DNA of 64,000 nucleotides, taken from NCBI GenBank assembly GCA_965371225.1, contig CBDUXP010000008.1:41427-105426 (forward strand). Reading direction: 5' to 3'. Shown here piece by piece: positions 274 to 40,438 of this stretch. The position numbers and the translations under genes are program-made. The DNA comes from CBDUXP01 sp965371225 [NCBI: uncultured bacterium]. Its GTDB lineage: Bacteria > Abyssobacteria > SURF-5 > CBDUXP01. Below the pieces are notes generated by a model. That model was not told the origin of the DNA. It worked only from the letters and a program-made list of their open reading frames with translations, and searched no databases. Position 1 is the stretch's first letter. Every line of letters starts with the position of its first letter.

Positions 274-1494
274 TCATCCGAGTCGGGTGTTGAGTTCAAA
301 AATCGGCAGCAGGATCGCGAGCACGACGAAGCCGACGATCCCGCCCATCACCAGGATCATCGCCGGCTCCACCAGCGAGACGAGCGCGCTCAGGTCGGCC
401 TCCAGCTCTTCGTCCGCCGTGTCCGCCGTCCGCAGCAGCATCTCATCCAGGCGGCCGCTCCGTTCGCCGAGCGCGACCATGTGCAGGACGATCGACGGGA
501 AGATACCCGTGCGGCGCAGCGCCCCGGCCAGGTCGTCGCCCCGCCGCACCCCTTCCTGCGCCTCTTCGATGGCGCGCGCGAAGCGCACGTGGTTCACCAC
601 GTTGCGCACGATGTTCATGCCGTCCAGCAGCGGCAAGCCGCTGTGCAACAGGGTGCCCAAGGTCCGGCAGAAGCGGGAGATGATGAGACTCTGGGTCAGC
701 CGGCGGAGCACGGGCGCCCGCATGCGGAACCCGTCCCACTGGGCCCGGCCGGGCGGCGTGGCCAAGTACGCGCGGAGGAACAGCACGCCGCCGATCAGCC
801 CCAGCCCCAGGGCCCACCACCACATCTGCACGAAACCGCTCGCGGCCAACAGCACGCGGGTCATTAGTGGTAATTCCTGGCCGATCTCCAGGAGCATGCG
901 GGTCACCTGTGGGACGATGTACGCCAGGAGGAAGGTTAAGACCCCGATCCCGACCACGGTCATGAGGGCGGGATAGGTCATGGCGGCCTGGATCCGGCGG
1001 CGGATCTGGCCGCGGCGCTCCAGGTAATCGGCCAACCGGCTGAGCACCGCGTCCAGCGCTCCCGCCGCCTCGCCGGCGCGGACCATGTTCACGTACATGG
1101 GCGGGAACCAGCGCGGCGCCTGACTTAGCGCGTCGCTGTAGCTCGTGCCCTTGCTGACGTTCCCCTTGAGGCCGAGCACGACCGTCGCCAACGGGGCATG
1201 GTCGATCTGTTCCATGACCGCGTCGAGCGCGTCCACCAGCGGCATCCCCGCCTGCAGGAGCACCGCCATTTGGCGCGTGAACACGGCGCGGTCCCGTTCG
1301 CTGACCCGCGCGGGGAGCCACTGCCGTACGGTGGTGGGCCGGGGGCCGCTCTCCCCCGCCGCCTCGGCGACCGTGGTGGGGACCAGCCCCATGTCGCGCA
1401 ATTTTGCGCGCGCGGCGACGGGCGTATCGGCGTCCAGCACGCCCGTGGTGGTGCTGCCCGCGGTGGTGAACGCGCGATAGCTGTAAACCGGCAT
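274..1494 (-). CDS. gspF: Type II secretion inner-membrane platform protein GspF
   Basis: GspF is the polytopic inner-membrane platform that couples the GspE ATPase to pseudopilus assembly. The 406 residues are the normal family length. Two T2SSF cytoplasmic domains are visible (about 70-195 and 275-395), separated and followed by three hydrophobic segments, including YPALMTVVGIGVLTFLLAYI and, at the C-terminus, ILVMGGIVGFVVLAILLPIF. It opens with the typical MPVYSYRAF. It lies 21 bases after gspE and 10 bases before gspG on the same strand, so it is co-transcribed with them. Confidence 0.96.
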   Translation of the reverse strand: MPVYSYRAFTTAGSTTTGVLDADTPVAARAKLRDMGLVPTTVAEAAGESGPRPTTVRQWLPARVSERDRAVFTRQMAVLLQAGMPLVDALDAVMEQIDHAPLATVVLGLKGNVSKGTSYSDALSQAPRWFPPMYVNMVRAGEAAGALDAVLSRLADYLERRGQIRRRIQAAMTYPALMTVVGIGVLTFLLAYIVPQVTRMLLEIGQELPLMTRVLLAASGFVQMWWWALGLGLIGGVLFLRAYLATPPGRAQWDGFRMRAPVLRRLTQSLIISRFCRTLGTLLHSGLPLLDGMNIVRNVVNHVRFARAIEEAQEGVRRGDDLAGALRRTGIFPSIVLHMVALGERSGRLDEMLLRTADTADEELEADLSALVSLVEPAMILVMGGIVGFVVLAILLPIFELNTRLG

Positions 1495-1515
1495 CCCGTG
1501 CGGCTCCGCCCCGGC

Positions 1516-3216
1516 CTAGGCCTCCACGACCACTTCGCGCGTGACGCGCAAGACTTCTTCAATCGTCGTCTGGCCGGCGAGTATCTTGCGGGCGCCGTCG
1601 CCCCGCAGGGTTTGCAGATGCCCGCGGGCGACCGCGAGACGCCGGATTTCCGTCGCCGCCGCGTGGTGCAGCACCGCTTCCTGCAGTTCCGCATCCATCA
1701 GAAGCAGTTCAAAGATGCCCGTGCGCCCCAGGTAGCCGCGATCCGAACACTTCGCACACCCCACCGCGCGATAGGCCATGCCCTCGGGCAGGTCGGCCTG
1801 CCGGATGCCCACCTCCAGCAGCTCCTCGTCGGACGGGCGATACGCTTCGCGACAGTGCGCGCACACGGTCCGCACCAGGCGTTGCGCAATGATCGCCACC
1901 ACGGAGCTGCTCACCAGGAACGGTTCGATGCCCATATTGGTCAAGCGGGTGATGCCGCCGGCCGCGTCGTTGGTGTGCAGGGTACTGAACACCAAGTGGC
2001 CGGTCAGGGACGCCTGGATCGCCATCTCGGCGGTTTCAATATCGCGCACTTCACCCACGAGAATGATGTCCGGGTCCTGGCGCAGCATGGAGCGCAACCC
2101 GTTCGCGAAGGTCAAGTCGATCTGCCGCCGGACCTGGATCTGGCCGATGCCATCCATCTGGTACTCCACCGGATCCTCGATGGTGATGATGTTTTTTTCG
2201 GCGCTGTTCAGCCGGGACAGGGCGGCGTACAGGGTGGTGGTCTTGCCGCTGCCCGTGGGCCCGGTCACGAGCACGATCCCGTGGGACAGGCGGATCACCC
2301 GCTCCAGCACGTTCAGGTCCTCGGCGCTCATGCCCAGCTGCTCCAGCGAGAAGAGGAAATTGGTGCGGTCCAGGATGCGCATGACCACGCGCTCGCCGTA
2401 GGACGTGGGCACGATGCTGACGCGAATGTCGATTTCGACGCCCCGCAGGGTGATCTTGATGCGTCCGTCCTGCGGCAGCCGGCGTTCGGCAATGTCCAGG
2501 TCGGCCATCACCTTGATGCGCGAGACGATGGAGGCGTGCATCTGGCGCGGCGGCCGGTGCATCTCGTACAGCACGCCGTCGATCCGGTAGCGCACCTTCA
2601 GCTCCCGTTCGTACGGTTCAATGTGCACATCGCTGGCGCGCTCGCGGACCGCTTGGGAAATGATCACGTTGACCAGCTTGATGATCGGCGCTTCGTGGGC
2701 CAGGTCCAGCAGGTCGCGCCGCTCTTCCGCCAGCGCCTCCAAGCCGAGTTCCGTCTCGTCGATATCCTGAATGATCTGCGCGGCGCTGTGCTGCTCCGCA
2801 TCGAAGTAGCCCTCGATGACACGCACGATCTCGCCGCGCGGGTAGACCACCGGCTCAACGCGCATGGCGAGCAGCGCGGCCAAATCGTCCAACGCGTGGA
2901 GGTTGAACGGGTCGTAGACGCCCACGATGCAGCAGTCCCCCTCCTCCCGGAGCGGCACCATCAGGTGCTCCCGCAGGAATGCCAGCGGCACTTTGGTCAG
3001 CAGCGCCGGCGTCACCGCGCGGTCGATCTGGGGCGCGTATTCCAGCGCCAGGTACTCGGCCGCCGCCGCGAGATATTCCTCCTCGGGCAGCCACCCTTCC
3101 TCCACGAGCACTCCCCCCAAATGCCCGTTCCGCTGCTGTTGCAGCGCCTCGGCCGCCGCCAAGTGATCCGTCGTCAGCGACGTGTGCGCGAGGAGGTGGG
3201 CACCCAGAGCGGACAT
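1516..3216 (-). CDS. gspE: Type II secretion ATPase GspE
   Basis: This hexameric cytoplasmic ATPase powers pseudopilus assembly. It has 566 residues from the ATG at 3216, five bases after the gspD stop; the open frame runs further upstream, but only across gspD. An N-terminal GspE/MshEN-type domain is followed by the ATPase core: Walker A GPTGSGKTTTLY, an Asp-box region around ITIEDPVEYQ, Walker B ILVGEVRDIET and a His-box (LVFSTLHTNDA). Near the C-terminus the two CxxC pairs (CAHC and CAKC) form the zinc-binding tetracysteine element of T2SS-type ATPases. Confidence 0.97.
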   Translation of the reverse strand: MSALGAHLLAHTSLTTDHLAAAEALQQQRNGHLGGVLVEEGWLPEEEYLAAAAEYLALEYAPQIDRAVTPALLTKVPLAFLREHLMVPLREEGDCCIVGVYDPFNLHALDDLAALLAMRVEPVVYPRGEIVRVIEGYFDAEQHSAAQIIQDIDETELGLEALAEERRDLLDLAHEAPIIKLVNVIISQAVRERASDVHIEPYERELKVRYRIDGVLYEMHRPPRQMHASIVSRIKVMADLDIAERRLPQDGRIKITLRGVEIDIRVSIVPTSYGERVVMRILDRTNFLFSLEQLGMSAEDLNVLERVIRLSHGIVLVTGPTGSGKTTTLYAALSRLNSAEKNIITIEDPVEYQMDGIGQIQVRRQIDLTFANGLRSMLRQDPDIILVGEVRDIETAEMAIQASLTGHLVFSTLHTNDAAGGITRLTNMGIEPFLVSSSVVAIIAQRLVRTVCAHCREAYRPSDEELLEVGIRQADLPEGMAYRAVGCAKCSDRGYLGRTGIFELLLMDAELQEAVLHHAAATEIRRLAVARGHLQTLRGDGARKILAGQTTIEEVLRVTREVVVEA

Positions 3217-3221
3217 GGTCG

Positions 3222-5384
3222 TTACTTGACCGGCGCGTCGATGAGCCCCGGAACGTCGATGCGCCCCGAGACGGCGGCCGCGGCCTCCGTGGTCCGGGGG
3301 GCCGGCAGCAAGGTGTGGGAGTTGCGCGGCTGCGGCCGGAAGGTGCGCGACCGCCGGTACGTGCCCACGCCCTGCATCTGCTCTTGCGCCTGGTCCGGCA
3401 GCTCGCGCGCCTTCTCTCGCGTCACCCATTCGGACGTTTTGAGATCGGGCACGATGGTCGGCGTGATGAAGACCATCAGGTTCGTTTTCGAGGTCGTGCG
3501 GGACCGGTTCTTGAAGAGCCAGCCGAAGAGGGGGATGTCGCCGAGCACCGGCACCTTGTTGACGGTGTCGCGGTCGCTCTCCGTGATCAAGCCGCCGATC
3601 ACCACCGTATGGCGATCGTTGACCAGCACTACGGTCGTCACCTCCCGCTTGACCTCGGTCAAGGTGCGGCTCTGGCCCACCAACACTTCCGGGCCCACCT
3701 CGTTCACTTCCTGGTGCAGCTCGAGCCGCACCGTCCCGTCCGGCGCGATGTGCGGCGTCACCTCCAGGGTGATCCCCACGTCGCGGAATTCGAAAGTTTC
3801 GTTCTGCGCGAGGCCGGAGCCCGCGCCCGTATCCGTGAGCGTGCCCGTGACGAACGGCACATTGTCGGCAATGACGATGCGCGCCTCTTCATTGTCCAGC
3901 ATCAGCAGGTTCGGCGAACTCAGGATGTTGAAGTCGCTGTCCAACTGGTTGGCGTTCGCCTCGATGAACAGTTGCAAGACCCCCATATCGAACGACAGCG
4001 CGCCAATGGTGCCGCCGACGGGGAGGGCGCCGGGGACGGCCGTGCTCACCGCAGCGATGTTCGTGAGATTGATCGGCGCCCCCAGATTCGACAGGTTGCT
4101 CAGCGTGCTGGCACCGACCGTCTGGTTCACGCCCGCGAACCCGCCATCGCTCCGGCCGGAAGCGCCGGTGAGGGACCACCGGATACCCAGGTTCCGCGCG
4201 AAGTCCAGGCTGACTTCCGCGATCAAGACTTCCACAAGCACCTGCGGGCGGCGGACGTCCAGTTGGTCGATGATGCGGCGCATGACCTCGAAGTCTTGCG
4301 GGCTGGCGATGAGCAGCAGCGCGTTCGTCGCCTCGTCCGCCACGACGGACACCTCCGGGTAGAACGTGCGCACGCGCTCGGCGGAGGCGGCGCCGTCTCC
4401 GGCGGGCGGGGCGGCGCTCGCCAGGTTGGTCAAGACGTCCGCCAACTCGGGGGCCAGGGCGTTGGAGAGTTGGTACACGTGAATGTTGTTCTGCTCCACG
4501 GGCGTCTGCGTGTCCAACTCGCGAATGAGGAACATGACCTGTTGGGAATCGATTTCATTGGCGACGATAATGAGCGAATTCGTGCGCGTTTCCGGAATGA
4601 TTTTCACTTCGCTGGGCCGCCCCGCCACCGCGGCTTCCGGCGGCTGCCCCGCGCGGCGCGGCCGGCGCGGTGTCGCCTGCGCCCCGATCGGTTCCAGCGC
4701 TTCCCGCAGGGTCTGGGCGATCTGGTCGGCGCGGGCGTACTTCAGCGCGATGATCGTGATGTTTTCCTGATACCCGGACACGTCGATCTGGTCCACGATC
4801 CGCAGGATCCGGCGAATGTTCGCCGAGGAGTCCGTCATGATGATCGTGTTCGTATTGGGGTGGGCGACCATGTTCGAGTCGCGGCTCACCAGCGATTGGA
4901 GGATGCCCGTCAGCCCCTGCGCCTCCGCGTACCGCAAGGGAATCAACTGCGTGACCAATTGATCCTCTGTGAACCCGGGGCAGTGGTCGCGCCCCACGCA
5001 CACGGGAATGTCCTTCTGGGCCGCGGTCCGGGCCTGCACCACCTTGTACGCGTTGTCCCCGGGCACCAGGGCAAATCCGTGCAATTCCAGAATGGCCTGC
5101 AACACCTCGAACGCCTGCGCCCGCGGCACCCGGCGCGGCGCCACGATCGTGACCGTCCCCTTGACCGCAGGATCGATCAGGAAATTCTGGCCCGTCATCC
5201 GGCTGACGGCGTTGATGACTTCGCGCAGGTCCGCCCCGTCGAAGTTGATGGACACCATGTCGCCCCCATCGTCGAAGGGTTCCTGGCCCGGCGGGGGGAT
5301 CTGGGCGGCGACGGCTGCCGGATACCCCGACAACACCATCATGGCAAGTGCGCCGGCCGTGAGCCCAAGCCAAATGCGGTGCAT
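3222..5384 (-). CDS. gspD: Type II secretion outer-membrane secretin GspD
   Basis: GspD forms the gated outer-membrane channel of the type II system. It is 720 residues long. A signal peptide (MHRIWLGLTAGALAMMVLSG, then an AVAA-type cleavage region) is followed by the N0 domain (VSINFDGADLREVINAVSR), three N1-N3 repeats including LIPLRYAEAQGLTGIL and IIALKYARADQIAQTLREAL, and the secretin beta-barrel domain. The barrel ends in the diagnostic VPVLGDIPLFGWLFK and LMVFITPTIV. A Pro/Ala-rich insertion with TPRRPRRAGQPPEAAVAGRP sits inside the N-domain repeats. The C-terminal tail of about 80 residues after the barrel may hold the pilotin-binding S-domain, but I cannot assign it. It lies 8 bases after gspC. 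Confidence 0.97.
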   Translation of the reverse strand: MHRIWLGLTAGALAMMVLSGYPAAVAAQIPPPGQEPFDDGGDMVSINFDGADLREVINAVSRMTGQNFLIDPAVKGTVTIVAPRRVPRAQAFEVLQAILELHGFALVPGDNAYKVVQARTAAQKDIPVCVGRDHCPGFTEDQLVTQLIPLRYAEAQGLTGILQSLVSRDSNMVAHPNTNTIIMTDSSANIRRILRIVDQIDVSGYQENITIIALKYARADQIAQTLREALEPIGAQATPRRPRRAGQPPEAAVAGRPSEVKIIPETRTNSLIIVANEIDSQQVMFLIRELDTQTPVEQNNIHVYQLSNALAPELADVLTNLASAAPPAGDGAASAERVRTFYPEVSVVADEATNALLLIASPQDFEVMRRIIDQLDVRRPQVLVEVLIAEVSLDFARNLGIRWSLTGASGRSDGGFAGVNQTVGASTLSNLSNLGAPINLTNIAAVSTAVPGALPVGGTIGALSFDMGVLQLFIEANANQLDSDFNILSSPNLLMLDNEEARIVIADNVPFVTGTLTDTGAGSGLAQNETFEFRDVGITLEVTPHIAPDGTVRLELHQEVNEVGPEVLVGQSRTLTEVKREVTTVVLVNDRHTVVIGGLITESDRDTVNKVPVLGDIPLFGWLFKNRSRTTSKTNLMVFITPTIVPDLKTSEWVTREKARELPDQAQEQMQGVGTYRRSRTFRPQPRNSHTLLPAPRTTEAAAAVSGRIDVPGLIDAPVK

Positions 5385-5392
5385 ACGCCTCC

Positions 5393-6346
5393 TTACCGCA
5401 CCTTGAAGATGAGGTGGCGCGGCAGGTTGTTCCGAATGATCTGGACCCGAATGTCGTTCGCGGACATCATGGTGTCCCCCATCGCGATCAGGTCCTGCTG
5501 CGAATTGACGCGCTGCCCGTTCACGGAGATCACCACATCGCCGGCCTGAAACCCCAGCGACGTGAGCAGGTTCCCGCGCCCCAAGTCGCGCAGGACGAGC
5601 CCGGAGTTTTGCCCGCCCACCATCCGGGGCTCGGTGTAGACCGAATCGATCGTCTGCAGCAGGTCGGGCCCCAGTTCGCGCTGGAACGCGTCCCCGTTGA
5701 TCACGCGCAAGTTGTCGTTGATGCGCCGGATGGGGTCCGTGGCGGCGGCCGGCTGGCGCCGCTGTCCCCGCAGGTTGCGCGGCGTCCGCGACGCGAACGA
5801 GCGGGCGACCCGCGTGCCGCTGGAGGCGCCCGGCGGCACCGCCATCGCGCCGGCGAGCATTTTCAACACTTCCTGCCGACCGTTGCGGATCAAGACCACG
5901 AGCTGCTCGTACACCCCGTGGAGCAGGGCCCCCTCCACGATGGTGTCCCCGATTTCGTACAGCTTCTGCGTCCGGGCCGTCTGATTCTCGATGATCGCGT
6001 AACCCGCGCCCGGTCCCAGCGCTACCGTGCCCACGAGCCGGAGCTTCAGCGTCGTCTCCCGCAAATTTTCCAGCACCGGGCCCTGCGGCTTCGGGCGGGG
6101 AGCGGGGGCCGGCCGCTCACTGAGCGCCCCGAACACGGGGGAGGCACGCAACGCCGCAAACCGGGCGCTGGGCAGTTGGACCGGAGTGGTCGGTGGGGGC
6201 GGGGGAGCCGGCGGTGCGGCGGCGGGGCGCCCGTCAGCCAGGACGGTCTGGACGGTGGTGAAGATGCTCGTCAGCGCCATTAGGACGAGCGCGAACGACA
6301 CGACCAGCCATGCCAGTTGAATTACTCGATTTGAGACGCGAATCAT
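5393..6346 (-). CDS. gspC: Type II secretion clamp protein GspC with C-terminal PDZ domain
   Basis: GspC is a bitopic inner-membrane protein that links the inner platform to the secretin. A single N-terminal membrane helix (VIQLAWLVVSFALVLMAL) is followed by a proline-rich periplasmic linker. Next comes the homology region (LRLVGTVALGPGAGYAIIEN) that contacts GspD N0. A C-terminal PDZ domain ends with LGFQAGDVVISVNGQRVNS and LPRHLIFKVR. I chose the ATG at 6346 (317 residues). The in-frame GTG at 6376 overlaps a plausible -10 element and would put extra residues before the membrane helix. It is the first gene of the visible operon. Confidence 0.92.
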   Translation of the reverse strand: MIRVSNRVIQLAWLVVSFALVLMALTSIFTTVQTVLADGRPAAAPPAPPPPPTTPVQLPSARFAALRASPVFGALSERPAPAPRPKPQGPVLENLRETTLKLRLVGTVALGPGAGYAIIENQTARTQKLYEIGDTIVEGALLHGVYEQLVVLIRNGRQEVLKMLAGAMAVPPGASSGTRVARSFASRTPRNLRGQRRQPAAATDPIRRINDNLRVINGDAFQRELGPDLLQTIDSVYTEPRMVGGQNSGLVLRDLGRGNLLTSLGFQAGDVVISVNGQRVNSQQDLIAMGDTMMSANDIRVQIIRNNLPRHLIFKVR

Positions 6347-7712: not shown

Positions 7713-7997
7713 TTACAGGGCTTCGACTTCGTCAATCTCGGGCCGCTCTCCCAGCAGGCCCTTACTCAACTCAAAGAACTCCAGAAAGTGCGGGAATCGC
7801 TGGTGCGCATCCCGCGCTGCCGCGTCCTGCCACACTTCGTAAAAGCGGATGACCGCGGGATCGGCGCCGGACCTGAACGCCTGGTAGGTCACGCTGCCGG
7901 GTTCGTCCTGCGTCGCCGCCACCAGCGCAGACACCCCGTCCTGCAGCGCGGCTTCGGCGCCCGGTTTCGCCTTGATCTTGACGAAGACGTAGATCAC
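7713..7997 (-). CDS. Small ABM-domain (YgiN-like) monooxygenase, copy 1
   Basis: This 94-residue protein of the antibiotic biosynthesis monooxygenase (ABM) dimeric alpha-beta barrel fold opens MIYVFVKIKAKPGAEAAL and carries the family features DEPGSVTYQAF and VIRFYEVWQDAAARDAHQ. The fold usually oxidises quinols or aromatic substrates without a cofactor, or degrades haem; the substrate here cannot be read. It starts with GTG at 7997, 45 bases after the stop of a paralogous gene, and the dienoyl-CoA isomerase-like gene lies upstream of both, so the three are probably co-transcribed. Confidence 0.85.
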   Translation of the reverse strand: MIYVFVKIKAKPGAEAALQDGVSALVAATQDEPGSVTYQAFRSGADPAVIRFYEVWQDAAARDAHQRFPHFLEFFELSKGLLGERPEIDEVEAL

Positions 7998-8042: not shown

Positions 8043-8330
8043 TTAGAGACTCTGCACCACATCGGCTTCCATGGGCTCCGCCATGTCCGGGGTGTGTTGC
8101 TCGCCGAACTGCTGGAAGTGGGGCGCCGCCATGTGCGCCTGCAGCGCCTGCATGTCCCGCCATTCTTCCTTCAGGCGGATCACGGTCGGATCGTTCTGCG
8201 ACGCGAACGCTGCATACCCCAGGCACCCGTCCTCGGCTTGCGTGGCGGCAACCAGCTCCCGCAGGCTCGCCTGCACCGCCTCAGCGCGGTCCGCTTTGAT
8301 CGTGAGTTTGACGAAAATGTGAACGCTCAT
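8043..8330 (-). CDS. Small ABM-domain (YgiN-like) monooxygenase, copy 2
   Basis: This 95-residue ABM-fold protein (MSVHIFVKLTIKADRAEAV, then LGYAAFASQNDPTVIRLKEEW) is clearly paralogous to the next gene downstream. The His in HMAAPHFQQFGE sits where the family has its conserved C-terminal histidines. It has a clear ribosome binding site (AGAGGAG) ahead of the ATG. It lies 42 bases after the dienoyl-CoA isomerase-like gene. A tandem pair may form a heterodimer, since the ABM fold is normally dimeric; that is inference. Confidence 0.85.
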   Translation of the reverse strand: MSVHIFVKLTIKADRAEAVQASLRELVAATQAEDGCLGYAAFASQNDPTVIRLKEEWRDMQALQAHMAAPHFQQFGEQHTPDMAEPMEADVVQSL

Positions 8331-16601: not shown

Positions 16602-16761
16602 GGGCGATGCTCCGGGGCCCGTCCCCCCGCCGCCGGCCGCGGCCCCGGCCGCGCCTTTCCCCGCCCGTCCGCCGGGGACACACTACAGTGGGCGGGACCC
16701 GTTGTCTGCGTGGTGGGGCGCGGCTATGCTGGGCGCCGCCGCACAGCCGGAGGGAGTACGC

Positions 16762-17922
16762 GTGGCCGGTCATCGAACCTTCGTCGAACTCATTAATGAT
16801 GTGATCAAGGCCGACCGCTGTTCGGAATGCGGCGCCTGCGTCATCGTGTGCCCGTACAACGTGCTGGAGTACCACGAGACCAAACCCCGGCGCCGGCCCA
16901 AGGACGGGGTGGCGGACGATTTCTGCGAGGTGCACGACCGTCTCGGCTGCGACGTGTGTGCGCAAGTGTGTCCGCAGCTCGACGATCAGGAGGTGGAGCT
17001 GGCGGACTGGTTCGTCAAGGACGGCGAGGCGTGGCAACTGGGCGAGTACGGGTGGTACAAGGACTTCTTCGTGGCGCGGGCCGTCAACAAGGACGTGCTC
17101 ATGCGCGGGCAGGACGGCGGCGTGGTCACCGCCATGCTGCTCTACGCGCTGGAACGCGACATCATCGACGGCGCCATCGTGACGGTCGCCGATCCCGACA
17201 CGCCCTGCTTGCCGAAGCCGGCAGTGGCCACCACGCCGGAGGAAATTCTCGCCAGCGCCGGCTCGTGGTACACCTACGCGCCGAACCTCCTGGCGTACGA
17301 CGAGGCCCTCGAGCGCGGCCTGGAGCGCATCGCCTACGTGGGCGTGCCCTGCCAAATTACGCCGCTCGCCAAGATGGCGATTCAGGCGCCACCGCGGCCC
17401 GAGTGGGACGCGGCGCGGGACCGGCCGGACAAGTCCTGGCCCCGGCAGAACGAATACCTCACGCGCGCCGCCGAGCGCACCGCCCTGCGCATCGGCCTGT
17501 ACTGCTCCGAGACGTTCTCCTACGAAGGGCTCATGATCCAGAAGATCCAGGGCGACATGGGCATCCCGCTCTCGTTCGTGGACAACTTCAACGTCAAGGG
17601 CAAAGTGTTGATCCGCACGAAGGACGGGGTCGTGCACGACCTTGCGCTCAAGGACGCGCAAGAGTACGCGCGAGTCGAGTGCCACTCCTGCCGCGATTTC
17701 TCCGCGCAGTGGAGCGACATCAGCTTCGGCGGCGTCGGCACCCGCGACTGGACCATCTGCCAACCGCGCACGCAGCGCGGCCTCGACCTCCTCCAGCAGA
17801 TGATCGACGATGGCTACATCGAGCTGGCCGACAAGGCCGAGTTCGAGAAGTGCTTCCGCACGCTGACCTTCCTGACTATCCAGCAGTTGCTGCGCGCCGG
17901 CCCCGCCGGCCACCACGCCTAG
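16762..17922 (+). CDS. FrhB/FdhB-type F420 hydrogenase/dehydrogenase beta-subunit family iron-sulfur flavoprotein
   Basis: I chose the GTG at 16762 (386 residues), seven bases after an AGGAGGG-like ribosome site (near 16749-16755). An N-terminal ferredoxin-type segment carries Cys motifs CSECGACVIVCPYN and CDVCAQVCPQ for [4Fe-4S] clusters. The FrhB N- and C-terminal domains follow, with GQDGGVVTAMLLYAL, YVGVPCQITPL, ALRIGLYCSETFSY and CHSCRDFSAQWSDISFGG. In characterised members this fold binds FAD and moves electrons between F420 and iron-sulfur clusters. Its position convergent with the complete F420 biosynthesis operon supports an F420-linked oxidoreductase. The partner substrate is unknown. 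Confidence 0.88.
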   Translation: MAGHRTFVELINDVIKADRCSECGACVIVCPYNVLEYHETKPRRRPKDGVADDFCEVHDRLGCDVCAQVCPQLDDQEVELADWFVKDGEAWQLGEYGWYKDFFVARAVNKDVLMRGQDGGVVTAMLLYALERDIIDGAIVTVADPDTPCLPKPAVATTPEEILASAGSWYTYAPNLLAYDEALERGLERIAYVGVPCQITPLAKMAIQAPPRPEWDAARDRPDKSWPRQNEYLTRAAERTALRIGLYCSETFSYEGLMIQKIQGDMGIPLSFVDNFNVKGKVLIRTKDGVVHDLALKDAQEYARVECHSCRDFSAQWSDISFGGVGTRDWTICQPRTQRGLDLLQQMIDDGYIELADKAEFEKCFRTLTFLTIQQLLRAGPAGHHA

Positions 17923-18032: not shown

Positions 18033-18791
18033 CTAGCGGAACAGGTCTTCGCCGGGCTTGCGGAGGAGCGCTTGCGCGTTCGTGCGGTTGTTCCGGCGGT
18101 ACCGGTATCCGCGCACGATCACCACCGGCACCCCGGCATCCTTGCGCATCAGCAGCCCCGCGGCGGCGGCAAGTTCGTCGGCGACGGCCACCATCGTGTG
18201 CTCCAGCGGGCGACCCATCAGGTCTTTCTTGCCCGCATAGTCCTCGATGGGCCGGAGCCCGCTCACCCCAATCGCAAACTCCACGAGCCCGGCGCGCCAC
18301 GGCCGTCCCCACGTGTCGCTGACGATCACCGACAACGTGCACCCGGCCAGGCGCTCCAGCTCCTCCTGCAAGGCCGCGGCGGCGCGGTCGGAATCCTCGG
18401 GCAGCAGCAGCGCGTGGTCGTCCCGCTCCACGTTGCTCTGGTCCACGCCCGCGTTGGCGCAGATGAACCCGTGGTGCGTTTCGCAGATGAGCACGCCGCG
18501 GTCCATCCGCGCCACCCGCTTCGTTTCCCGCAACACGGTCTCGATGAGCCGCGGATCCTTACCGTACGTACTGGCGTAGCGTTCCGCGAAAGGGGACGGG
18601 CGCACTTTCCGCAAATCGACCCACCGGCCCGCCGCCTTTGACACGATCTTCTGCGCCACCACGAGCACGTCGCCCTTCTGCAGGCGCACGTCTTGCGCGT
18701 CGCACGCGTCCACGATGCGCGGGGCAAGCGCCGCGCCCTTCCGAATGCGCGGCAGCCCCATCACGGGGATGAGCGCGATCGGTTCAGGCAT
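18033..18791 (-). CDS. cofE: Coenzyme F420-0:L-glutamate ligase CofE
   Basis: CofE adds gamma-linked glutamates to F420-0 using GTP. It is 252 residues, matching stand-alone CofE; the nitroreductase-like half of actinobacterial FbiB is absent. Characteristic segments are GDVLVVAQKIVSKAAGR, GVLICETHHGFICANAGVD, VIVSDTWGRPWRAGLVEFAIG and AVADELAAAAGLLM. The start overlaps the end of cofC by eight bases, so the genes are translationally coupled. It is the last gene of the five-gene cof operon. Confidence 0.95.
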   Translation of the reverse strand: MPEPIALIPVMGLPRIRKGAALAPRIVDACDAQDVRLQKGDVLVVAQKIVSKAAGRWVDLRKVRPSPFAERYASTYGKDPRLIETVLRETKRVARMDRGVLICETHHGFICANAGVDQSNVERDDHALLLPEDSDRAAAALQEELERLAGCTLSVIVSDTWGRPWRAGLVEFAIGVSGLRPIEDYAGKKDLMGRPLEHTMVAVADELAAAAGLLMRKDAGVPVVIVRGYRYRRNNRTNAQALLRKPGEDLFR

Positions 18792-19428
18792 GGACGCTCG
18801 ACAACCAGGGCCGCGCGTGCGCCACGCTCCGGCGCGGCGCGTCCGTGGCCGCGAGCCGGGCGAGGTCGTCGGGCGTGTCGATATCGAGCGCGATCGACGG
18901 ACAGGACACGATGACGGGCGCGACGCCCGCCGCGTTGGCCAGGCCCCGGTGGCGGGCCAGCGATCCGGGCCCGAAGGCGATGGGAATCAGGCCGGCGGGC
19001 CGGCGAAACACGGCGTTCGTTCCCGTTCCGTCCTCGGACGGCACGTACGCGATCCCCGCGCCCCCAACGGCGTCGAGCACGCGGGCCACCTCCGCCGCCT
19101 GCGTCAGGGGACAGTCGCCGGTGATCACCAGCGTGGCCGTCGCGCCCTGCCCCACCGCGCGGTCGGTGGCCCAGTTGACCGCCCCATTGAGTCCGCTCCC
19201 GGCCGGTTCGGCCCAGGCGTCCACCGCGTGCGCCGCCGCGAGCGCTTGCACGGCGGTATCGCGACTGACGACGACAATCCGGTCGATGGCGGCGACGGCC
19301 GCGCACGCGTCCAGCAGATCCTCCAGCATGGCGCCCACCAGCGCGCGCCGCTGGGCGGGTGCGAGGACGGGTGCCAGGCGATGCTTCACCGTCGTCAACG
19401 ACTTCACGGGGATCAGGGTAATGAGCAC
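18784..19428 (-). CDS. cofC: 2-phospho-L-lactate (or 3-phosphoglycerate) guanylyltransferase CofC
   Basis: CofC activates a phosphorylated three-carbon acid with GTP for CofD. The 214 residues show the MobA-like nucleotidyltransferase fold: LIPVKSLTTVKHRLAPVL (N-terminal P-loop-like motif with Lys and Arg), VVSRDTAVQALA, NWATDRAVGQG, LVITGDCPLTQAAEV and IAYVPSEDGTGTNAVF. It sits between cofD (18 bases) and cofE (overlap). Whether it uses 2-phospholactate, phosphoenolpyruvate or 3-phosphoglycerate cannot be read from the sequence. Confidence 0.93.
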   Translation of the reverse strand: MLITLIPVKSLTTVKHRLAPVLAPAQRRALVGAMLEDLLDACAAVAAIDRIVVVSRDTAVQALAAAHAVDAWAEPAGSGLNGAVNWATDRAVGQGATATLVITGDCPLTQAAEVARVLDAVGGAGIAYVPSEDGTGTNAVFRRPAGLIPIAFGPGSLARHRGLANAAGVAPVIVSCPSIALDIDTPDDLARLAATDAPRRSVAHARPWLSSVHA

Positions 19429-19446: not shown

Positions 19447-21951
19447 CTAGCGGCGCTGTCCCCCGCGGCGCCGCGCCCGTTCCGCCATCGTTTCCGCTTC
19501 GTCGCTCGGGGTCCAGCCCAGCGTCTCGAGGGATGCCGGGACGTTCGACATCTTGCCGGCCGTGCTCTGCGCCGGCTTCGGCGTGTCCGCCGCGGGAGCG
19601 GGGGGGGTCGTCGATGGCGCTGCCGGTGGTGCGGGCGGGTGTGGCGTCGCGGTCTCCTCCGGAATTTTCCGCTGGAGTTTGGCCACGTGGGCTTCGCTCG
19701 CGGCAATCGCCGTGGTGGCCGCGTCCAGTTGGGCCTGCAGCTTCTGCACCTGCGCCTGGAGTCCGGCCACCGCGCTTCGCAGATCCTCCCGCACCCGCGC
19801 GGACTGGTTGCCGCGCGACTCCGCCGCCACCGCCTCGGCCGTCGCCAGTCGCGCGCGGAGGTGCCCGATCACTTGGCGCGCGCGTTCCCGCTGCACTGTT
19901 CGCCGCTCGCGCGACTGCCGGCGCTGCTGGGCGGCCTCGCGGAGGGCGGTTTCCAACTCTTGGATACGCGCGTGCGTGCGGCTCTCGGCCATGTTCCCCG
20001 CGGTGTCTTCCGCATCGGCACGTTGCTCGGCCATGTCCCCCTCCTGCCGCGCCTCATCGCGCGCGGCCATAAGGCGCCACGCCTCCTGCTCCAGCACACG
20101 CACCTGCTCGCGATGCTCCGCTTCGGCCGTGCCCAGGCGGTGCTCCCGGTCGGCAAGCTGCTCGGTCAGGGTGGCGCTACGCACCTGGGCTTCGGCACGC
20201 GTCTCGGCAAGGACCGTGGTTTCGCGTTCCAGCGCCGCGACGCGCTCTTGCCCCTGCAACTCGATTCCGCGGAACGCCTCCTCCCACTGGGCGTTCGCCA
20301 CCTGCGCCCTCTCGCCCGCGGCGCGGGTGGCGCGCAGTTCCTCCGTCAAGGCGGCGAACTGCGCCTGCACCTCCTGGGTGTCCGACGTGCCGCCGGCGCC
20401 ACCGCCATCGCGCAAGGCGTTCCGCTCCGCTTCCAGGGCCGCGATCCGCCCCCGCAGGCGCTCCCCGTGCGCCACGACCGTGTCCAGCGCGCGCTGGGCC
20501 TCCGCATCCCGTACGCGGGCGTCCTCCGCCGCGGAAGCGCGCTGGCGATCCAGGTTCACCTGTTGCTCCGCCCGTTCCGCCTCGGCAGCGGCCAACTGCG
20601 CCTCAAGCGCCGCCGCCTGCGTAACCGCGGCGGCCTCCCGCGCCTCGGCCACGTCTGCGGCGGTCTGCTCGTCACGCGCGGCCCGGCGTTGCTCGTCCAG
20701 TGCGAGCTGGGCGGCGTCGTGCTCGCTCCAGGCGAGGTCCGCATCCGCCGTAGCGCGGGCCAGCTTGTCTCGCGTCTCCTCCACCTCCTCCCGTAATTCT
20801 TCGACGGTACGTTGGAGCGCGTCGAGTTCGGCCCACGCAACGGCGGCATCTTCGGTAGCGAGCAGTTGGGCGTCCAGCTCCGCGATGCGCGTGCGCAAGG
20901 CCTCCACCTCGGCCCCGGTGGGATCAGGCGCCGCCGCGGTGATGGTGTGCGGGTCGGGGCCGGGCGTGAGGGGCTGGAACGGGGGGGGCTGGGGCGGCGG
21001 CACCTGCGTGACGGGGTAGTCCACCGCCGCCAGGACGCTCCGCGCGACGGTGAGCGACGCGGGCAGGTCCGGCATCAGCGTGTCGATGGCCAGCACGGTC
21101 AGGCCGCGCTGTTCCAACGCCGGCGCATCGGCGGCGTCGCGGTCGTGAATGACGAGCAGGTCGATGAGGCCGGCATAGGCGTCGGCCAAGCCCTCGTTAC
21201 TCACGGCGATCCCGAACGCGCGCATGAGTTGCGCGGAGGGGCCGCTGACGGGCGCGCCCCCAAGCAGCGGGCTCACCGCGACGCCGCGCGCCTTGCTGGC
21301 CACGATCGCGTCGAAGATCCCGTTCACGCTGAGGATCGTCCCAATGCTCACCACGGGGCTGCTCGGCGCGATGAGCAGCACGTCGGCCTCGGCGATGGCC
21401 TGCAGCACCCCGGCGGCGGGTTGGGCCGCGCCGATGTTCTGGAAGATGATCGCCTGCACGTCGTCCGGCGCCCCGCGCTCGATGAGGTACTCCTGAAAAT
21501 GCACGAGGGACCCGTCGGCCAATTGCACGTGCGTTTCCACCGTCTGGTCGGTCATGAGCAGGATGCGCTGTTGCACGCCGAGGGCCCGGCGAATGTCGTC
21601 TGCGACCGCGGACGGCGTCTTCCCCTGTGCCAGCAGATTGGTGCGGTGCAGGTGCGTGGCCAGGTCGCGATCGCCCAGGTTGAACCAGCCCGGCCGGCCG
21701 TAGCCGCGCAATTGTTCGAGGCAGACGAACGAATCTTGGGCGAAGCCCCACGCCTTGAGGGGATCCACCAGGCCGGCGAGGGTGTACGTAATAATGTCCA
21801 CGTCCGGGGAAATGCGCAGGCCATGCATGGTCACGTCATCGCCCGTGTTGACGATGACGGTCAACCGCTCGGGCGGGACGCAGCCGGCCACCCCGCGGAC
21901 GAACTTGGCGCCGCCGGTGCCGCCGGCCAGCACGACCACGTTACCGCTCAT
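19447..21951 (-). CDS. cofD: CofD (F420 phospholactyl transferase) fused to a long C-terminal coiled coil
   Basis: The 834-residue protein starts at ATG 21951, four bases into the end of cofG (ATGA overlap). Residues 1-312 are a complete CofD, which transfers the phospholactyl (or equivalent) group to the deazaflavin Fo: VVVLAGGTGGAKFVRGV, IVNTGDDVTMHGL, WFNLGDRDLATHLHRT and LIAPSSPVVSIGTIL. Family members are normally about 310-330 residues. Residues 313-345 are a proline-rich linker (QVPPPQPPPFQPL). Residues 347-762 are an Ala/Glu/Arg/Gln-rich heptad-like coiled coil. Residues 763-834 are a second Pro/Ala tail ending in basic ARRRGGQRR. One uninterrupted frame covers everything. The extension may oligomerise CofD, tether it to the nucleoid or envelope, or scaffold the pathway; none of this is shown by the sequence. 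Confidence 0.92.
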   Translation of the reverse strand: MSGNVVVLAGGTGGAKFVRGVAGCVPPERLTVIVNTGDDVTMHGLRISPDVDIITYTLAGLVDPLKAWGFAQDSFVCLEQLRGYGRPGWFNLGDRDLATHLHRTNLLAQGKTPSAVADDIRRALGVQQRILLMTDQTVETHVQLADGSLVHFQEYLIERGAPDDVQAIIFQNIGAAQPAAGVLQAIAEADVLLIAPSSPVVSIGTILSVNGIFDAIVASKARGVAVSPLLGGAPVSGPSAQLMRAFGIAVSNEGLADAYAGLIDLLVIHDRDAADAPALEQRGLTVLAIDTLMPDLPASLTVARSVLAAVDYPVTQVPPPQPPPFQPLTPGPDPHTITAAAPDPTGAEVEALRTRIAELDAQLLATEDAAVAWAELDALQRTVEELREEVEETRDKLARATADADLAWSEHDAAQLALDEQRRAARDEQTAADVAEAREAAAVTQAAALEAQLAAAEAERAEQQVNLDRQRASAAEDARVRDAEAQRALDTVVAHGERLRGRIAALEAERNALRDGGGAGGTSDTQEVQAQFAALTEELRATRAAGERAQVANAQWEEAFRGIELQGQERVAALERETTVLAETRAEAQVRSATLTEQLADREHRLGTAEAEHREQVRVLEQEAWRLMAARDEARQEGDMAEQRADAEDTAGNMAESRTHARIQELETALREAAQQRRQSRERRTVQRERARQVIGHLRARLATAEAVAAESRGNQSARVREDLRSAVAGLQAQVQKLQAQLDAATTAIAASEAHVAKLQRKIPEETATPHPPAPPAAPSTTPPAPAADTPKPAQSTAGKMSNVPASLETLGWTPSDEAETMAERARRRGGQRR

Positions 21952-23099
21952 CTGCCCGGCCCCCGGGCGAACCCGTCCGTGTCCGCGAGGCGATCCACAA
22001 ATGGCGCCATCTCGGGATGGACGTACTCGCGCCGCCGCCGCACGTAGTCCGGGTACAGCGTCAGCCGCTCGCGCAGCCGGAAGCCGGCGCGTTCGGTCAC
22101 GGCGCGCAACGCGTCCAGCGCCGGCCAGGGCGCCTCCGGATTCACGTAGTCCATGGTGAGGGGGGAGACGCCGCCCCAATCGGTGATGCCGCAGGCCAGG
22201 AACGCGCCATACTCGTCGGGCGTGAGGTTCGGCGGCGCCTGGATCGGCAGCTCGGGGCCGCAGATGAGCCGGGCGGCCGCGAGGACGCGCCGCATCATGG
22301 TCACGTCCGGCTCCGTACACCCTTCCATCCGCGTGCCGGATTTCGCGCGGAAGTTCTGCACGATGATTTCCTGGATCTGGCCGCCGGCCGCCAGGTCGCG
22401 GAGGGCGAACAGGGTGTCGATGATCTCGTCGGGCCGTTCGCCGATGCCGATGAGCAGGCCGCTGGTGAGGGGTACGCGGGTCGCCCGGCCGGCGCGCAAC
22501 ATCTCGAGCCGGCGTTCCGGCCGCTTGTCCGGCGACCGACGGTGCGCCGCGTCGGGGGCCATGAGGCGGTCGCTGACGGTTTCCAGCATGAGCCCCATGG
22601 AACCGGTGACCGGCTTCAGGTCGGCCAATTCCTGCGCGGTCAAGACGCCGCAATTAATATGCGGGAGCAGACCCGTCTCATCGCGCACGAGCTTCGCCAA
22701 CTGGTACAGGTACTCGGGCGTGCTCTCCACCCCGTAACCGGCCAAGGCGGTGCGCACGTCCGCGTACTTCGTCTCCGGCCGGTCGCCGGTCACGAACAAC
22801 GCCTCCGTGCAACCCAGGGCGCGCCCGGCCTCGGCCACCGCCAGCACCGCGTCGGGCGTCATGACCTGGGCGTGCGGCGGCTCCTGTTTGAAGGTGCAGT
22901 AGCTGCAATCGTCGCGGCAATGGGTGATGGCCGGCAGGAAGACGTTGCGCGCCACGGAAATGGTGTCGCCGTGCACCGTGCGCGCTTCGGCCGCCGCAAC
23001 GGCGCAGAGCGTGTCCAGCTCGGAACCCTCCAGCGTCAGCCACGCGCATGCTTCCGCGTGCGCGGGCGCGGACCGTGCGTGTGTGGTGACCGCCGGCAT
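21948..23099 (-). CDS. cofG: 7,8-didemethyl-8-hydroxy-5-deazariboflavin synthase subunit CofG (radical SAM)
   Basis: With CofH, CofG makes the Fo chromophore of F420 from tyrosine and a ribityl-pyrimidine. It has 383 residues. The radical SAM cluster cysteines are C61, C65 and C68 in HCRDDCSYCTF. Further features are GDRPETKYADVR, LPHINCGVLTAQELADL, LTSGLLIGIGERPDEIIDTL and ACGITDWGGVSPLT, all typical of CofG. It is a separate gene, unlike the CofG-CofH fusion FbiC of actinobacteria. It follows cofH after 16 bases and overlaps cofD. Confidence 0.96.
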   Translation of the reverse strand: MPAVTTHARSAPAHAEACAWLTLEGSELDTLCAVAAAEARTVHGDTISVARNVFLPAITHCRDDCSYCTFKQEPPHAQVMTPDAVLAVAEAGRALGCTEALFVTGDRPETKYADVRTALAGYGVESTPEYLYQLAKLVRDETGLLPHINCGVLTAQELADLKPVTGSMGLMLETVSDRLMAPDAAHRRSPDKRPERRLEMLRAGRATRVPLTSGLLIGIGERPDEIIDTLFALRDLAAGGQIQEIIVQNFRAKSGTRMEGCTEPDVTMMRRVLAAARLICGPELPIQAPPNLTPDEYGAFLACGITDWGGVSPLTMDYVNPEAPWPALDALRAVTERAGFRLRERLTLYPDYVRRRREYVHPEMAPFVDRLADTDGFARGPGR

Positions 23100-23115: not shown

Positions 23116-24264
23116 TCAGGCGACGGCCAACTGGCGCGCGCGGGCGGGGGCGAAATCCGGGCCGGGGCGTTTCGTCCGGTCGGGCAAGACTTCCTGGTAG
23201 GTGGTGGACCGGCGCCAGGGGGTCTTCCCGCCGCTGCGGATGGCGTCGATGAGCTGCTGTTCTTCCTGCTTCTGGCCGTGGGGGCCGCCGCTCATGCGGG
23301 TGATGTTCTCGGCCATGAGCGTGCCGCCGAAGTCATTGGCGCCCCAATCGAGGATCTCGACCGCCCCCTCCACGCCCAGCTTGACCCAGGACGTTTGCAG
23401 ATTGCGCACCACATCACTCAAGTACAGGCGCGCGACGGCGTACAGGCGCTGGACATAGGGCCAAGGCGCGGTGTCGGTCATCTTGAGCCTGCGGCCGAGG
23501 GGGTTGTCGTACGGGATGAACAGCAGGGGGACGAACTCGGTGAAGCCCCACGTGCGCGGCTGTTCGGTGCGGCACATTTCCAGGTGGTAGATCACGTGGT
23601 GGGGCTGTTCCAGGTGGCCGAACATGATGGTGTAGTTGCTGAGCACGCCCCGCTCGTGGGCCGCGTGGTGGATGCGAAACCAGTCCGCGGCGGGAAGCTT
23701 GCCCGGCGCGATCTGTTGGCGGATCTGGGGGTGGAAGTTCTCCGCGGCGGTGCCGGGCATGGTGTCCATCCCGGCCTCCACGACCCGGTCCAGCACCGCC
23801 TCGACCGTCATATCCATGCGCCGGGCCAGCTCCCAAATTTCCTGCGCACTGTAGGCGTGCAGGTGGATGGTCGGCTTCCACGCCTTCAGCCGCCCGAGCA
23901 GTTCGCAGTAATAATCGAGGTCGTGCCGGGGATTGATGCCCCCCTGAATGCAAATCTCGTCCACGTCTTCAAACGTAGCGAGCGTGGCGTCGAGCGTGGC
24001 GAGGTCCGTATCGAAGGCGCCGTCCTGGCTGTGCCCCCGTTTGAAGCCGCAGAACGCACAGTCCGTATAACAGATGTTCGTGAAGTTGTAGTTCCGGTTG
24101 ATCACGTAGGAGACGCGATCACCGTTCAACTGCCGGTTCAGCGCATCGGCCGCCTGGCGAATGGGTTCGTGCCAGTCCGCGCCGGCCGCCAGCAGGGCGA
24201 TGCCCTCGCGCGGCGTCAGATACTCCCCTCCCACCGCCTTATCCAGAAGAGCGCTCAGAGACAT
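23116..24264 (-). CDS. cofH: Fo synthase subunit CofH (radical SAM)
   Basis: CofH transfers the hydroxybenzyl group of tyrosine to 5-amino-6-ribitylaminouracil, the first committed step to F420. The 382 residues carry the radical SAM motif with C65, C69 and C72 (ICYTDCAFCGF). Other signatures are EICIQGGINPRHDLDYY, AENFHPQIRQQIAPGK and FTEFVPLLFIPYDNPLG. It is the first gene of cofH-G-D-C-E. Its ATG has a GGGAG ribosome site. Confidence 0.96.
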   Translation of the reverse strand: MSLSALLDKAVGGEYLTPREGIALLAAGADWHEPIRQAADALNRQLNGDRVSYVINRNYNFTNICYTDCAFCGFKRGHSQDGAFDTDLATLDATLATFEDVDEICIQGGINPRHDLDYYCELLGRLKAWKPTIHLHAYSAQEIWELARRMDMTVEAVLDRVVEAGMDTMPGTAAENFHPQIRQQIAPGKLPAADWFRIHHAAHERGVLSNYTIMFGHLEQPHHVIYHLEMCRTEQPRTWGFTEFVPLLFIPYDNPLGRRLKMTDTAPWPYVQRLYAVARLYLSDVVRNLQTSWVKLGVEGAVEILDWGANDFGGTLMAENITRMSGGPHGQKQEEQQLIDAIRSGGKTPWRRSTTYQEVLPDRTKRPGPDFAPARARQLAVA

Positions 24265-39442: not shown

Positions 39443-40438
39443 TCAGACGACGGCGGGTTCCGCGTCCAACGGCACGTCGTCCGGGTCGACGCCCAGGCTG
39501 GCGTACAGCTTCTTGGTGCGGTCGGTCAGCAGGCCCAGCTTCCGCAACGCCGGAATGATCGTATCGGCGAACATGAACTTGTTGAAGCGGTTCTCCCGCC
39601 CCGGCCGGCTGGACCACGCGCTCAGTTCTTCCACTGAGACGCCGAACTCTTCATAGATCTTCAGGATGGAGAGCAGGCCCCCCTTGAGGTCGGCGCCCTT
39701 CCGCCGGGCCACCAGGGCCTCGCTCGCCCACGCCGCGAAATCCTCGAGCTCCGCCCGTTCCGCTTCGGTGGTTTCCTTCATGGCATCGGTGAGCGCGATG
39801 AGCCCGAAGCCCACGTGCCGCGACTCATCCCGGCGCACCAACTCCAGGATGTCCTGTAGCAACGGGTCCTCCGTGGTCATCTGCATGGCGCGGAACGCGG
39901 CCAGGGCGAGCCCCTCGACCACGATTTGCATCCCGATGTACTTCTTGCGCCAGTCGGGCGTCTCCAGGATGGCGTTGAGCAACTCCTGCAGGGTCGGGTC
40001 GATGGGATGGATCCGGTCCACTTTCGTGATGTACTTCCGGAAGACCTCCACGTGCCGCGCCTCATCCATGACCTGGGCGCTGGCGCACATCTTCGAATCC
40101 ATGTCCGGCACCGCGTCCACCAGGTGGCCGCACACGAGCAACGCGCCCTGCTCCCCGTGCAGGAATTGGCTCAGCCGCCAGCCCGCCATGCGTCTGCCCA
40201 CCTCATCCTTCTGCTCCTCCGTGAGGCGCTCGAAGAAGGGGGCGTTCGCCACGGGGGACATGCGCATCTGCAGGATTTGCGCCCCCTCCGGCATTTCCTG
40301 ATCCCAATTCAGATCGGTGCTGACGTTCCACTGATCGCGCTTGGCGCGCTCGTACAGATCATCCAGCGACGGCAGGTGGGTGTCATAGTCGAACTCGAAG
40401 AGCGACTGAAGCGGAGTATCAATGGTGACGCTGCTCAT
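39443..40438 (-). CDS. Ferritin-like diiron-carboxylate protein, paralogue A
   Basis: This 331-residue all-helical protein starts at ATG 40438 (GGGGGGAAGG ribosome site) behind a TATAGT -10 at 40512-40517. The six diiron ligands are E96 (HGEQGAL), E126 and H129 (MDEARH), E175 (VVEG) and E205 and H208 (DESRH), the (E, ExxH)x2 pattern of ferritin-like oxidases. It lacks the spacing and radical-tyrosine context of ribonucleotide reductase R2. It may be an oxygenase, N-oxygenase or desaturase acting on a substrate metabolised by the downstream MBL hydrolase. Three paralogues occur in this window. Confidence 0.82.
   Translation of the reverse strand: MSSVTIDTPLQSLFEFDYDTHLPSLDDLYERAKRDQWNVSTDLNWDQEMPEGAQILQMRMSPVANAPFFERLTEEQKDEVGRRMAGWRLSQFLHGEQGALLVCGHLVDAVPDMDSKMCASAQVMDEARHVEVFRKYITKVDRIHPIDPTLQELLNAILETPDWRKKYIGMQIVVEGLALAAFRAMQMTTEDPLLQDILELVRRDESRHVGFGLIALTDAMKETTEAERAELEDFAAWASEALVARRKGADLKGGLLSILKIYEEFGVSVEELSAWSSRPGRENRFNKFMFADTIIPALRKLGLLTDRTKKLYASLGVDPDDVPLDAEPAVV

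What the first reader, a model, noticed from the sequence alone, without database searches (positions are those of the whole stretch)
19447..21951. CofD fused to a 500-residue proline-rich and coiled-coil tail
The F420 enzyme CofD is normally about 310-330 residues. Here one frame adds a Pro-rich linker, more than 400 residues of heptad-like Ala/Glu/Arg/Gln coiled coil and a basic C-terminus, inside an otherwise standard cofH-G-D-C-E operon. I know of no described CofD with such a domain. It may scaffold F420 synthesis, oligomerise CofD, or tether it to a structure.
Basis: partly seen in the sequence, partly recalled or inferred. Interest (0 to 1): 0.75.

Follow-up and report, generated by a model that had tools for sequence, protein, structure and literature searches.

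The report
F420 enzyme with coiled-coil stalk
An apparently complete F420-cofactor enzyme (CofD) carries a roughly 500-residue, mostly coiled-coil-like tail not seen on any other CofD examined, which may hold the enzyme in larger assemblies or at a fixed place, but no second example could be found to show that the tail is conserved.

Summary
Window 21951 to 19447 (-) is one open frame of 834 codons. Residues 1-306 are a complete CofD: NCBIfam TIGR01819 at 289.9 bits (cut-off 257.45), fold TM 0.94-0.95 to M. mazei CofD, both metal-binding aspartates kept. Then come a Pro-rich linker, about 415 residues of predicted helix with weak heptad-type spacing, a second Pro-rich linker and a short Arg-rich end. 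Codon usage supports this frame through the junction and most of the tail, against a frameshift artefact; the last segment is the weakest. The tail lies between cofD and cofC, adjacent in 58 of 59 distinct loci where cofC was found (Chloroflexota and plasmids mainly; cofC was not found beside cofD in 83 others). Of 142 distinct CofD loci, 141 have a stop in view, and none extends more than 37 residues past the domain. The host's own lineage could not be reached: no genome is held, best CofD identity seen is 52%, no metagenome scan was allowed. Recurrence is therefore untested. Best reading: a working CofD with a stalk that oligomerises or tethers it, possibly near CofC, to which CofD is functionally coupled. 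That role is inference. A neutral fusion is not excluded. New variant of a known kind.

The parts
21034..21951 (-). CofD catalytic domain (residues 1-306), 2-phospho-L-lactate / PEP transferase
   Evidence: TIGR01819 1-299/301, 289.9 bits; PF01933; Foldseek 3c3d/3c3e TMt 0.94-0.95
20917..21033 (-). Pro-rich linker (residues 307-345)
   Evidence: 13 Pro in residues 307-344; pLDDT under 50 at 327-344; in-frame GC3 of 1.0 over residues 301-340
20407..20916 (-). first helical coil segment (residues 346-515, break at 366-368)
   Evidence: AF2 helices 346-365 and 369-515; hydrophobic spacing 7 z 2.39 over 345-507
20389..20406 (-). break between coil segments (residues 516-521), in a Gly-rich stretch
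   Evidence: AF2 break; 24% Gly over 505-525
19666..20388 (-). second helical coil segment (residues 522-762, breaks at 645-651 and 715-717)
   Evidence: AF2 helices 522-644, 652-714, 718-762, pLDDT under 50 at 642-651; hydrophobic spacing 7 z 2.71 over 521-762
19504..19665 (-). Pro/Ala/Thr-rich linker, probably disordered (residues 763-816)
   Evidence: pLDDT under 50 at 764-820; 14 Pro in residues 763-834; weakest codon usage of the ORF
19447..19503 (-). short Arg-rich C-terminal end (residues 817-834) with stop codon
   Evidence: AF2 helix 817-830 at low confidence; not amphipathic
18784..19428 (-). cofC, 18 nt after the cofD stop; normal length (214 aa)
   Evidence: TIGR03552 145.9 bits, cut-off 105
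18033..18791 (-). cofE (252 aa), overlaps cofC by 8 nt
   Evidence: TIGR01916 262.4 bits, cut-off 180.65
21948..23099 (-). cofG, overlaps the cofD start by 4 nt
   Evidence: TIGR03550 389.9 bits, cut-off 213.35
23116..24264 (-). cofH
   Evidence: TIGR03551 351.4 bits (below its 374.1 cut-off); TIGR00423 300.6, above its 260.25 cut-off
16702..17922 (+). FrhB/FpoF-like F420 oxidoreductase with ferredoxin domain, converging on the operon
   Evidence: PF04432, PF04422, Fer4

Best explanation
It is one protein: an ordinary CofD head with a C-terminal coiled-coil-like stalk on flexible linkers. Shown: one open frame, a complete CofD domain with its metal ligands, a tail predicted helical with weak heptad-type spacing, and the tail's place between cofD and cofC. 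Inferred: the head makes F420-0 (or dehydro-F420-0) as usual. CofD heads are dimers in known structures, and the stalk, up to about 60 nm if one continuous helix (415 residues at a recalled 0.15 nm each), joins chains through the coil. That either builds larger CofD assemblies or tethers CofD to a partner or structure. The partner I think most likely is its own pathway, CofC above all, because CofC is inactive without CofD and is thought to hand over a labile intermediate.
For: Complete CofD equivalog match; fold match; metal ligands D45 and D57 of FbiA (passage) fall on D38 and D50 by the printed alignment, counted by hand (Asp confirmed), both invariant in 22 aligned sequences. The annotated frame has the best mean codon score of six in the CofD, first-linker, coil and last segments. 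Coil spacing; long predicted helices, 10-residue block pLDDT mostly 59-88, with low-confidence linkers at both ends. cofC lies right after cofD in 58 of 59 distinct loci where it was found and in 8 of 8 plasmid records fetched, out of 39. CofC-CofD dependence and channelling: passages of PMC8498797 and PMC8764529. CofD/FbiA dimers: passages of PMC7253369.
Against: No second CofD with such a tail was found (open frames of the listed rows). CofC and CofE have normal lengths and no matching extension, so no docking partner is visible. cofC was not detected beside cofD in 83 of 142 distinct loci, 80 of them outside the Chloroflexota and plasmid sets, so the junction is not universal. The coil's hydrophobic core is weak: 18% large hydrophobics, non-significant Fourier power peaking off 3.5. 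Codon usage in the coil is only slightly ahead of one antisense frame (0.29 vs 0.00; that frame is ahead over residues 661-700), and the annotated frame loses to two others over 761-800. The end of the tail is not amphipathic, so nothing shows a membrane anchor. AF2 readily gives helices for Ala/Glu/Arg-rich sequence (recalled); the tail had no aligned relatives, pTM was 0.47, no shuffled control was folded and no oligomer was modelled.
Confidence: 0.5

Rival explanations
1. Accidental fusion: a coiled-coil gene with its own unrelated job was joined to cofD by loss of the cofD stop (or the tail arose by read-through), and CofD gains nothing from it.
For: Only one example. Weak heptad core. No partner extension in CofC or CofE.
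Against: Linker and most of the coil keep coding-like codon usage in the CofD frame; Pro-rich, low-confidence linkers on both sides of the coil look like a built multidomain protein; tight spacing to cofC is kept.
Confidence: 0.25
2. Specific metabolon scaffold: the stalk binds CofC and/or CofE so the labile guanylyl intermediate passes directly between enzymes.
For: Tail sits at the cofD/cofC junction; CofC activity depends on CofD and channelling is proposed (passages).
Against: CofC and CofD of other species are described as coupled in assays (passages), and none of the CofDs examined here has a tail; no interaction was tested here.
Confidence: 0.15
3. Assembly or sequencing artefact: a lost stop or an indel joins cofD to a separate downstream coil gene.
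For: Single sequence; reads not available. In-frame GTG at codons 310, 317 and 349 and TTG at 352 could start a separate gene. If an indel shifted the frame, frame 2 has a stop at codon 342 that could have been the cofD end.
Against: Residues 301-340 read through the junction with in-frame GC3 of 1.0 and codon score 0.12 against -1.38 and -1.51 in the other two sense frames. This speaks against an indel, not against a substituted stop codon.
Confidence: 0.08
4. The tail is a spurious reading of GC-rich DNA, not translated protein.
For: Tail codon scores are lower than CofD's (0.29 in the coil vs 0.60), the last segment (763-834) scores -0.26, and over 761-800 two other frames score better.
Against: 1 of 2000 shuffles stays open; the frame has the best mean score of six over each segment; non-random hydrophobic spacing.
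Confidence: 0.02

Closest known systems
CofD (TIGR01819), e.g. Methanosarcina mazei 3c3d/3c3e and M. smegmatis FbiA 6uvx
   Same: Whole catalytic domain, fold, metal-binding aspartates
   Different: The solved chains are 311 and 327 residues long; this one runs on for about 525 residues with linker, coil and linker
FbiB (CofE fused to a nitroreductase domain) and FbiC (CofG-CofH fusion)
   Same: Gene fusions inside the F420 pathway (passages of PMC8498797)
   Different: Those join two enzyme domains; here an enzyme is joined to a helical tail with no recognised domain, and cofG, cofH and cofE are separate genes
Long prokaryotic coiled-coil arms such as SMC
   Same: Long helical segments (weak match to TIGR02168, E 0.063)
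   Different: No SMC head or hinge found; score far below the SMC cut-off (11 vs 567 bits); not a member

Membership tests
CofD / 2-phospho-L-lactate transferase | Match to the curated equivalog over its full length | tested here: met
   TIGR01819 289.9 bits, cut-off 257.45, profile 1-299/301
CofD / 2-phospho-L-lactate transferase | CofD fold | tested here: met
   AF2 domain vs 3c3e TMt 0.95, rmsd 1.5
CofD / 2-phospho-L-lactate transferase | Metal-binding aspartates (FbiA D45, D57) | tested here: met
   D38, D50
CofD / 2-phospho-L-lactate transferase | Transferase activity and its C3 substrate (2PL, PEP or 3PG) | not testable with these tools
   needs enzyme assay
CofD / 2-phospho-L-lactate transferase | Usual single-domain length near 310-340 residues (typical, not defining) | tested here: not met
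   834 aa against at most 37 residues past the domain in 141 distinct loci with a stop in view
Coiled coil | Heptad (3-4) hydrophobic pattern and long helix | tested here: inconclusive
   Spacing and a/d score significant, Fourier power not; helix from AF2 without tail relatives
SMC proteins | ATPase head and hinge | tested here: not met
   Only a sub-threshold coil match; no head or hinge family reported
F420-pathway fusion enzymes (FbiB, FbiC) | Second catalytic domain | tested here: not met
   No Pfam family reaches its cut-off in the tail

The most novel reading that the evidence does not exclude
In an unsampled diderm lineage CofD has become the structural core of the F420 pathway: its stalk assembles CofD heads with CofC (and perhaps CofE) into an ordered metabolon, so a soluble enzyme of cofactor synthesis doubles as a scaffold protein.
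Probability: 0.12. Interest if true: 0.7.

Novelty: new variant of a known kind. Interest (0 to 1): 0.42.

Why it matters
CofC and CofD are thought to pass a labile intermediate between them (passages); the passages I saw do not say what holds the two together. A CofD with a built-in stalk beside cofC would be a natural test case: remove the stalk and see whether coupling, oligomeric state or location changes. If it recurs, it would also be the first structural rather than catalytic fusion in F420 synthesis that I know of (recalled, plus the searches).

Tried and rejected
Out-of-frame reading: rejected by mean codon usage in six frames and shuffles, with the exceptions at 661-700 and 761-800 told above. 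Single alpha-helix (ER/K) domain: no i+4 acid-to-base excess. Internal repeats in the tail: none by self-BLAST; the one tandem repeat found is a 12-nt unit of 1.9 copies in cofC. Known domain in the tail: the best Pfam match is NPV_P10, a viral coiled-coil protein (nature recalled), E 0.0004 but 21.3 bits against a 29.8 cut-off and no stretch passing on its own; PDB sequence search best E 0.087, to mitochondrial ribosomal protein L32. I take neither as kinship. Membrane-binding end helix: hydrophobic moment at most 0.26. IMG/VR: 17 stretches matched a pattern, none encodes a relative of the CofD domain.

A first count (query 1-320) gave apparent extensions of 136, 111, 92, 72 and 49 residues (L064, L002, L006, L125, L049). 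L002 holds a stop inside the matched stretch, so that alignment ran past the true stop; for the others this is inferred. With the query cut to 1-306 the largest is 37, and 37 after removing duplicates, with no stop inside any of the 142 matches. Extensions are extrapolated where a match ends before residue 306. Rows dropped: 25 of 167 loci with the same matched core as another; L055, cut by a contig end, has no stop in view, which leaves 141; L138 matched only to residue 266. Open-frame columns are stop-to-stop upper limits; the largest listed are 684, 724 and 727, but searches did not list all matches, and their genome samples overlap. The phylum of G002 is not named: its record title says Melainabacteria, while its CofD groups with Actinomycetota in the tree; I treat that set as Actinomycetota by inference. 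Tree: the window sits on a long branch, joined at 81% to a Miltoncostaea plasmid CofD, flagged by the program as two long branches meeting; I draw no taxonomic conclusion.

Not done: the second structure job, VIA-align, RNA models, a larger Actinomycetota sample, PHROGs on the tail.

Full report
What is there. On the minus strand, window 21951 to 19447 is a single open frame of 834 codons. It overlaps the end of cofG by 4 nt and ends 18 nt before cofC, which overlaps cofE; cofH lies upstream. Residues 1-306 match the curated CofD equivalog TIGR01819 over positions 1-299 of 301 with 289.9 bits (cut-off 257.45). The tail matches no Pfam family above its cut-off (whole protein; residues 345-834).

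Is the catalytic domain intact? The nearest solved relatives are M. mazei CofD (E 7.8e-59) and M. smegmatis FbiA (E 1.8e-52). FbiA binds its metal through aspartates 45 and 57 (passages of PMC7253369); by the printed alignment these fall on D38 and D50 here, both invariant in the 22-sequence alignment. The AlphaFold2 domain superposes on 3c3e with target TM 0.95 and rmsd 1.5. Activity is inferred.

Is the tail real protein? Third-position GC in the annotated frame is 0.90 in CofD, 0.95 in the first linker, 0.84 in the coil and 0.83 in the last segment. The annotated frame has the best mean codon score of six in every segment (0.60, 0.00, 0.29, -0.26), but the lead over one antisense frame is small in parts of the coil: that frame is ahead over residues 661-700, and two other frames are ahead over 761-800. 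Just past the CofD domain (residues 301-340) the CofD frame scores 0.12 against -1.38 and -1.51 in the other sense frames, which argues against an indel at the junction. One of 2000 dinucleotide shuffles of the tail stays open. These tests do not exclude a lost stop codon.

What is the tail? A Pro-rich linker (13 Pro in 38 residues), 418 residues without Pro rich in Ala, Glu, Arg and Gln, then a Pro/Ala/Thr-rich linker. Hydrophobic residues favour spacing 7 (25 against 13.6 expected, z 3.65), lean to 3 and 4, and avoid 1, 2, 5 and 6. A best-register a/d score beats shuffles (4 and 0 of 500 as high for the two halves; 142 of 500 for the CofD domain as control), but Fourier power at 3.5 does not (111 and 54 of 500 as high): a weak, broken coiled coil is the fairest description. 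AlphaFold2, with no related sequences for the tail, gives helices 346-365, 369-515, 522-644, 652-714 and 718-762, mostly at block pLDDT 59-88, with pLDDT under 50 at 327-344, 642-651, 764-820 and 829-834, and pTM 0.47 overall. The Arg-rich end is neither amphipathic nor strongly basic overall.

Do other CofDs have it? The genome-contig scan with the CofD domain gave 49 loci, at most 47% identical. CofD was found in 57 of 100 genomes of the phylum of G002 (unnamed, Actinomycetota by inference) and in 192 of 301 of the phylum of G001 (Chloroflexota by its record title). A second, overlapping search of 400 genomes of that phylum gave 215 with a match at E 1e-60 or better, best listed identity 52%. 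Of 167 loci with CofD, 142 are distinct; of the 141 with a stop in view the largest extension past residue 306 is 37 and the median 7. The plasmid collection had 39 records with CofD; in the 8 of 39 that I fetched, the annotated cofD is 307-338 aa and cofC follows directly.

Is the junction special? CofC could be found in 59 of the 142 distinct loci and lies directly after cofD in 58 of them: 47 of 50 loci of the G001 phylum, 8 of 8 plasmid loci and 4 of 36 loci outside that phylum had a detectable CofC, but 0 of the 48 other loci did. So the tail fills a junction that is normally tight in Chloroflexota and in the plasmids seen, while in the Actinomycetota-type loci cofC was not found beside cofD at all.

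What could not be asked. No genome is held for the window and metagenomes could not be scanned. The window carries type II secretion genes gspC-F, so the host is probably a diderm, while the whole genomes I could reach are Actinomycetota-type or Chloroflexota. Recurrence in its own lineage is therefore untested, and the missing second example is weak evidence.

How it might work. CofC and FbiD show no activity without CofD or FbiA, and the product is labile; a catalytic complex or channelling is proposed (passages of PMC8498797, and PMC8764529). CofD and FbiA crystallise as dimers and FbiA is a dimer in solution (passages of PMC7253369). A stalk on CofD that multimerises heads or tethers them near partners would fit, and I take it as most likely (0.5), but neither CofC nor CofE has an extension that could dock, and none of the other CofDs examined has a tail. 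A functionless fusion (0.25) cannot be excluded from one sequence.

Novelty. Papers holding CofD or FbiA with F420 and coiled-coil: none. '2-phospho-L-lactate transferase' with 'coiled': one paper, seen only in the listing. A search for CofD fusions gave six papers, of which I saw passages of two (for the review 12 of 20 places); the passages seen name only the FbiC and FbiB fusions. A wider search listed 20 of 230 papers, of which I saw passages of one more (PMC7253369). The library is partial. I file it as a new variant of CofD: the head is a clear family member, the tail is not known to me on any CofD.

Noticed in passing
window 50197-51250 (-): prfB (release factor 2): CTTTGAC at about 51250-51244 looks like the well-known programmed +1 frameshift site (motif recalled), with the called frame (50197-51114) starting downstream.
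   Followed up: partly
window 274-6136 (-): Type II secretion genes gspC, gspD, gspE and gspF in a row, so the host probably has an outer membrane.
   Followed up: partly
window 39443-40438 (-), 42158-42943 (+), 43050-44078 (-): Three AurF-like or R2-like-ligand-binding-oxidase-like diiron proteins close together.
   Followed up: no
window 16702-17922 (+): FrhB/FpoF-like F420 oxidoreductase with a ferredoxin domain beside the cof operon, a likely F420 user.
   Followed up: no
window 7713-7997 and 8043-8330 (-): Two neighbouring small antibiotic-biosynthesis-monooxygenase-domain genes.
   Followed up: no
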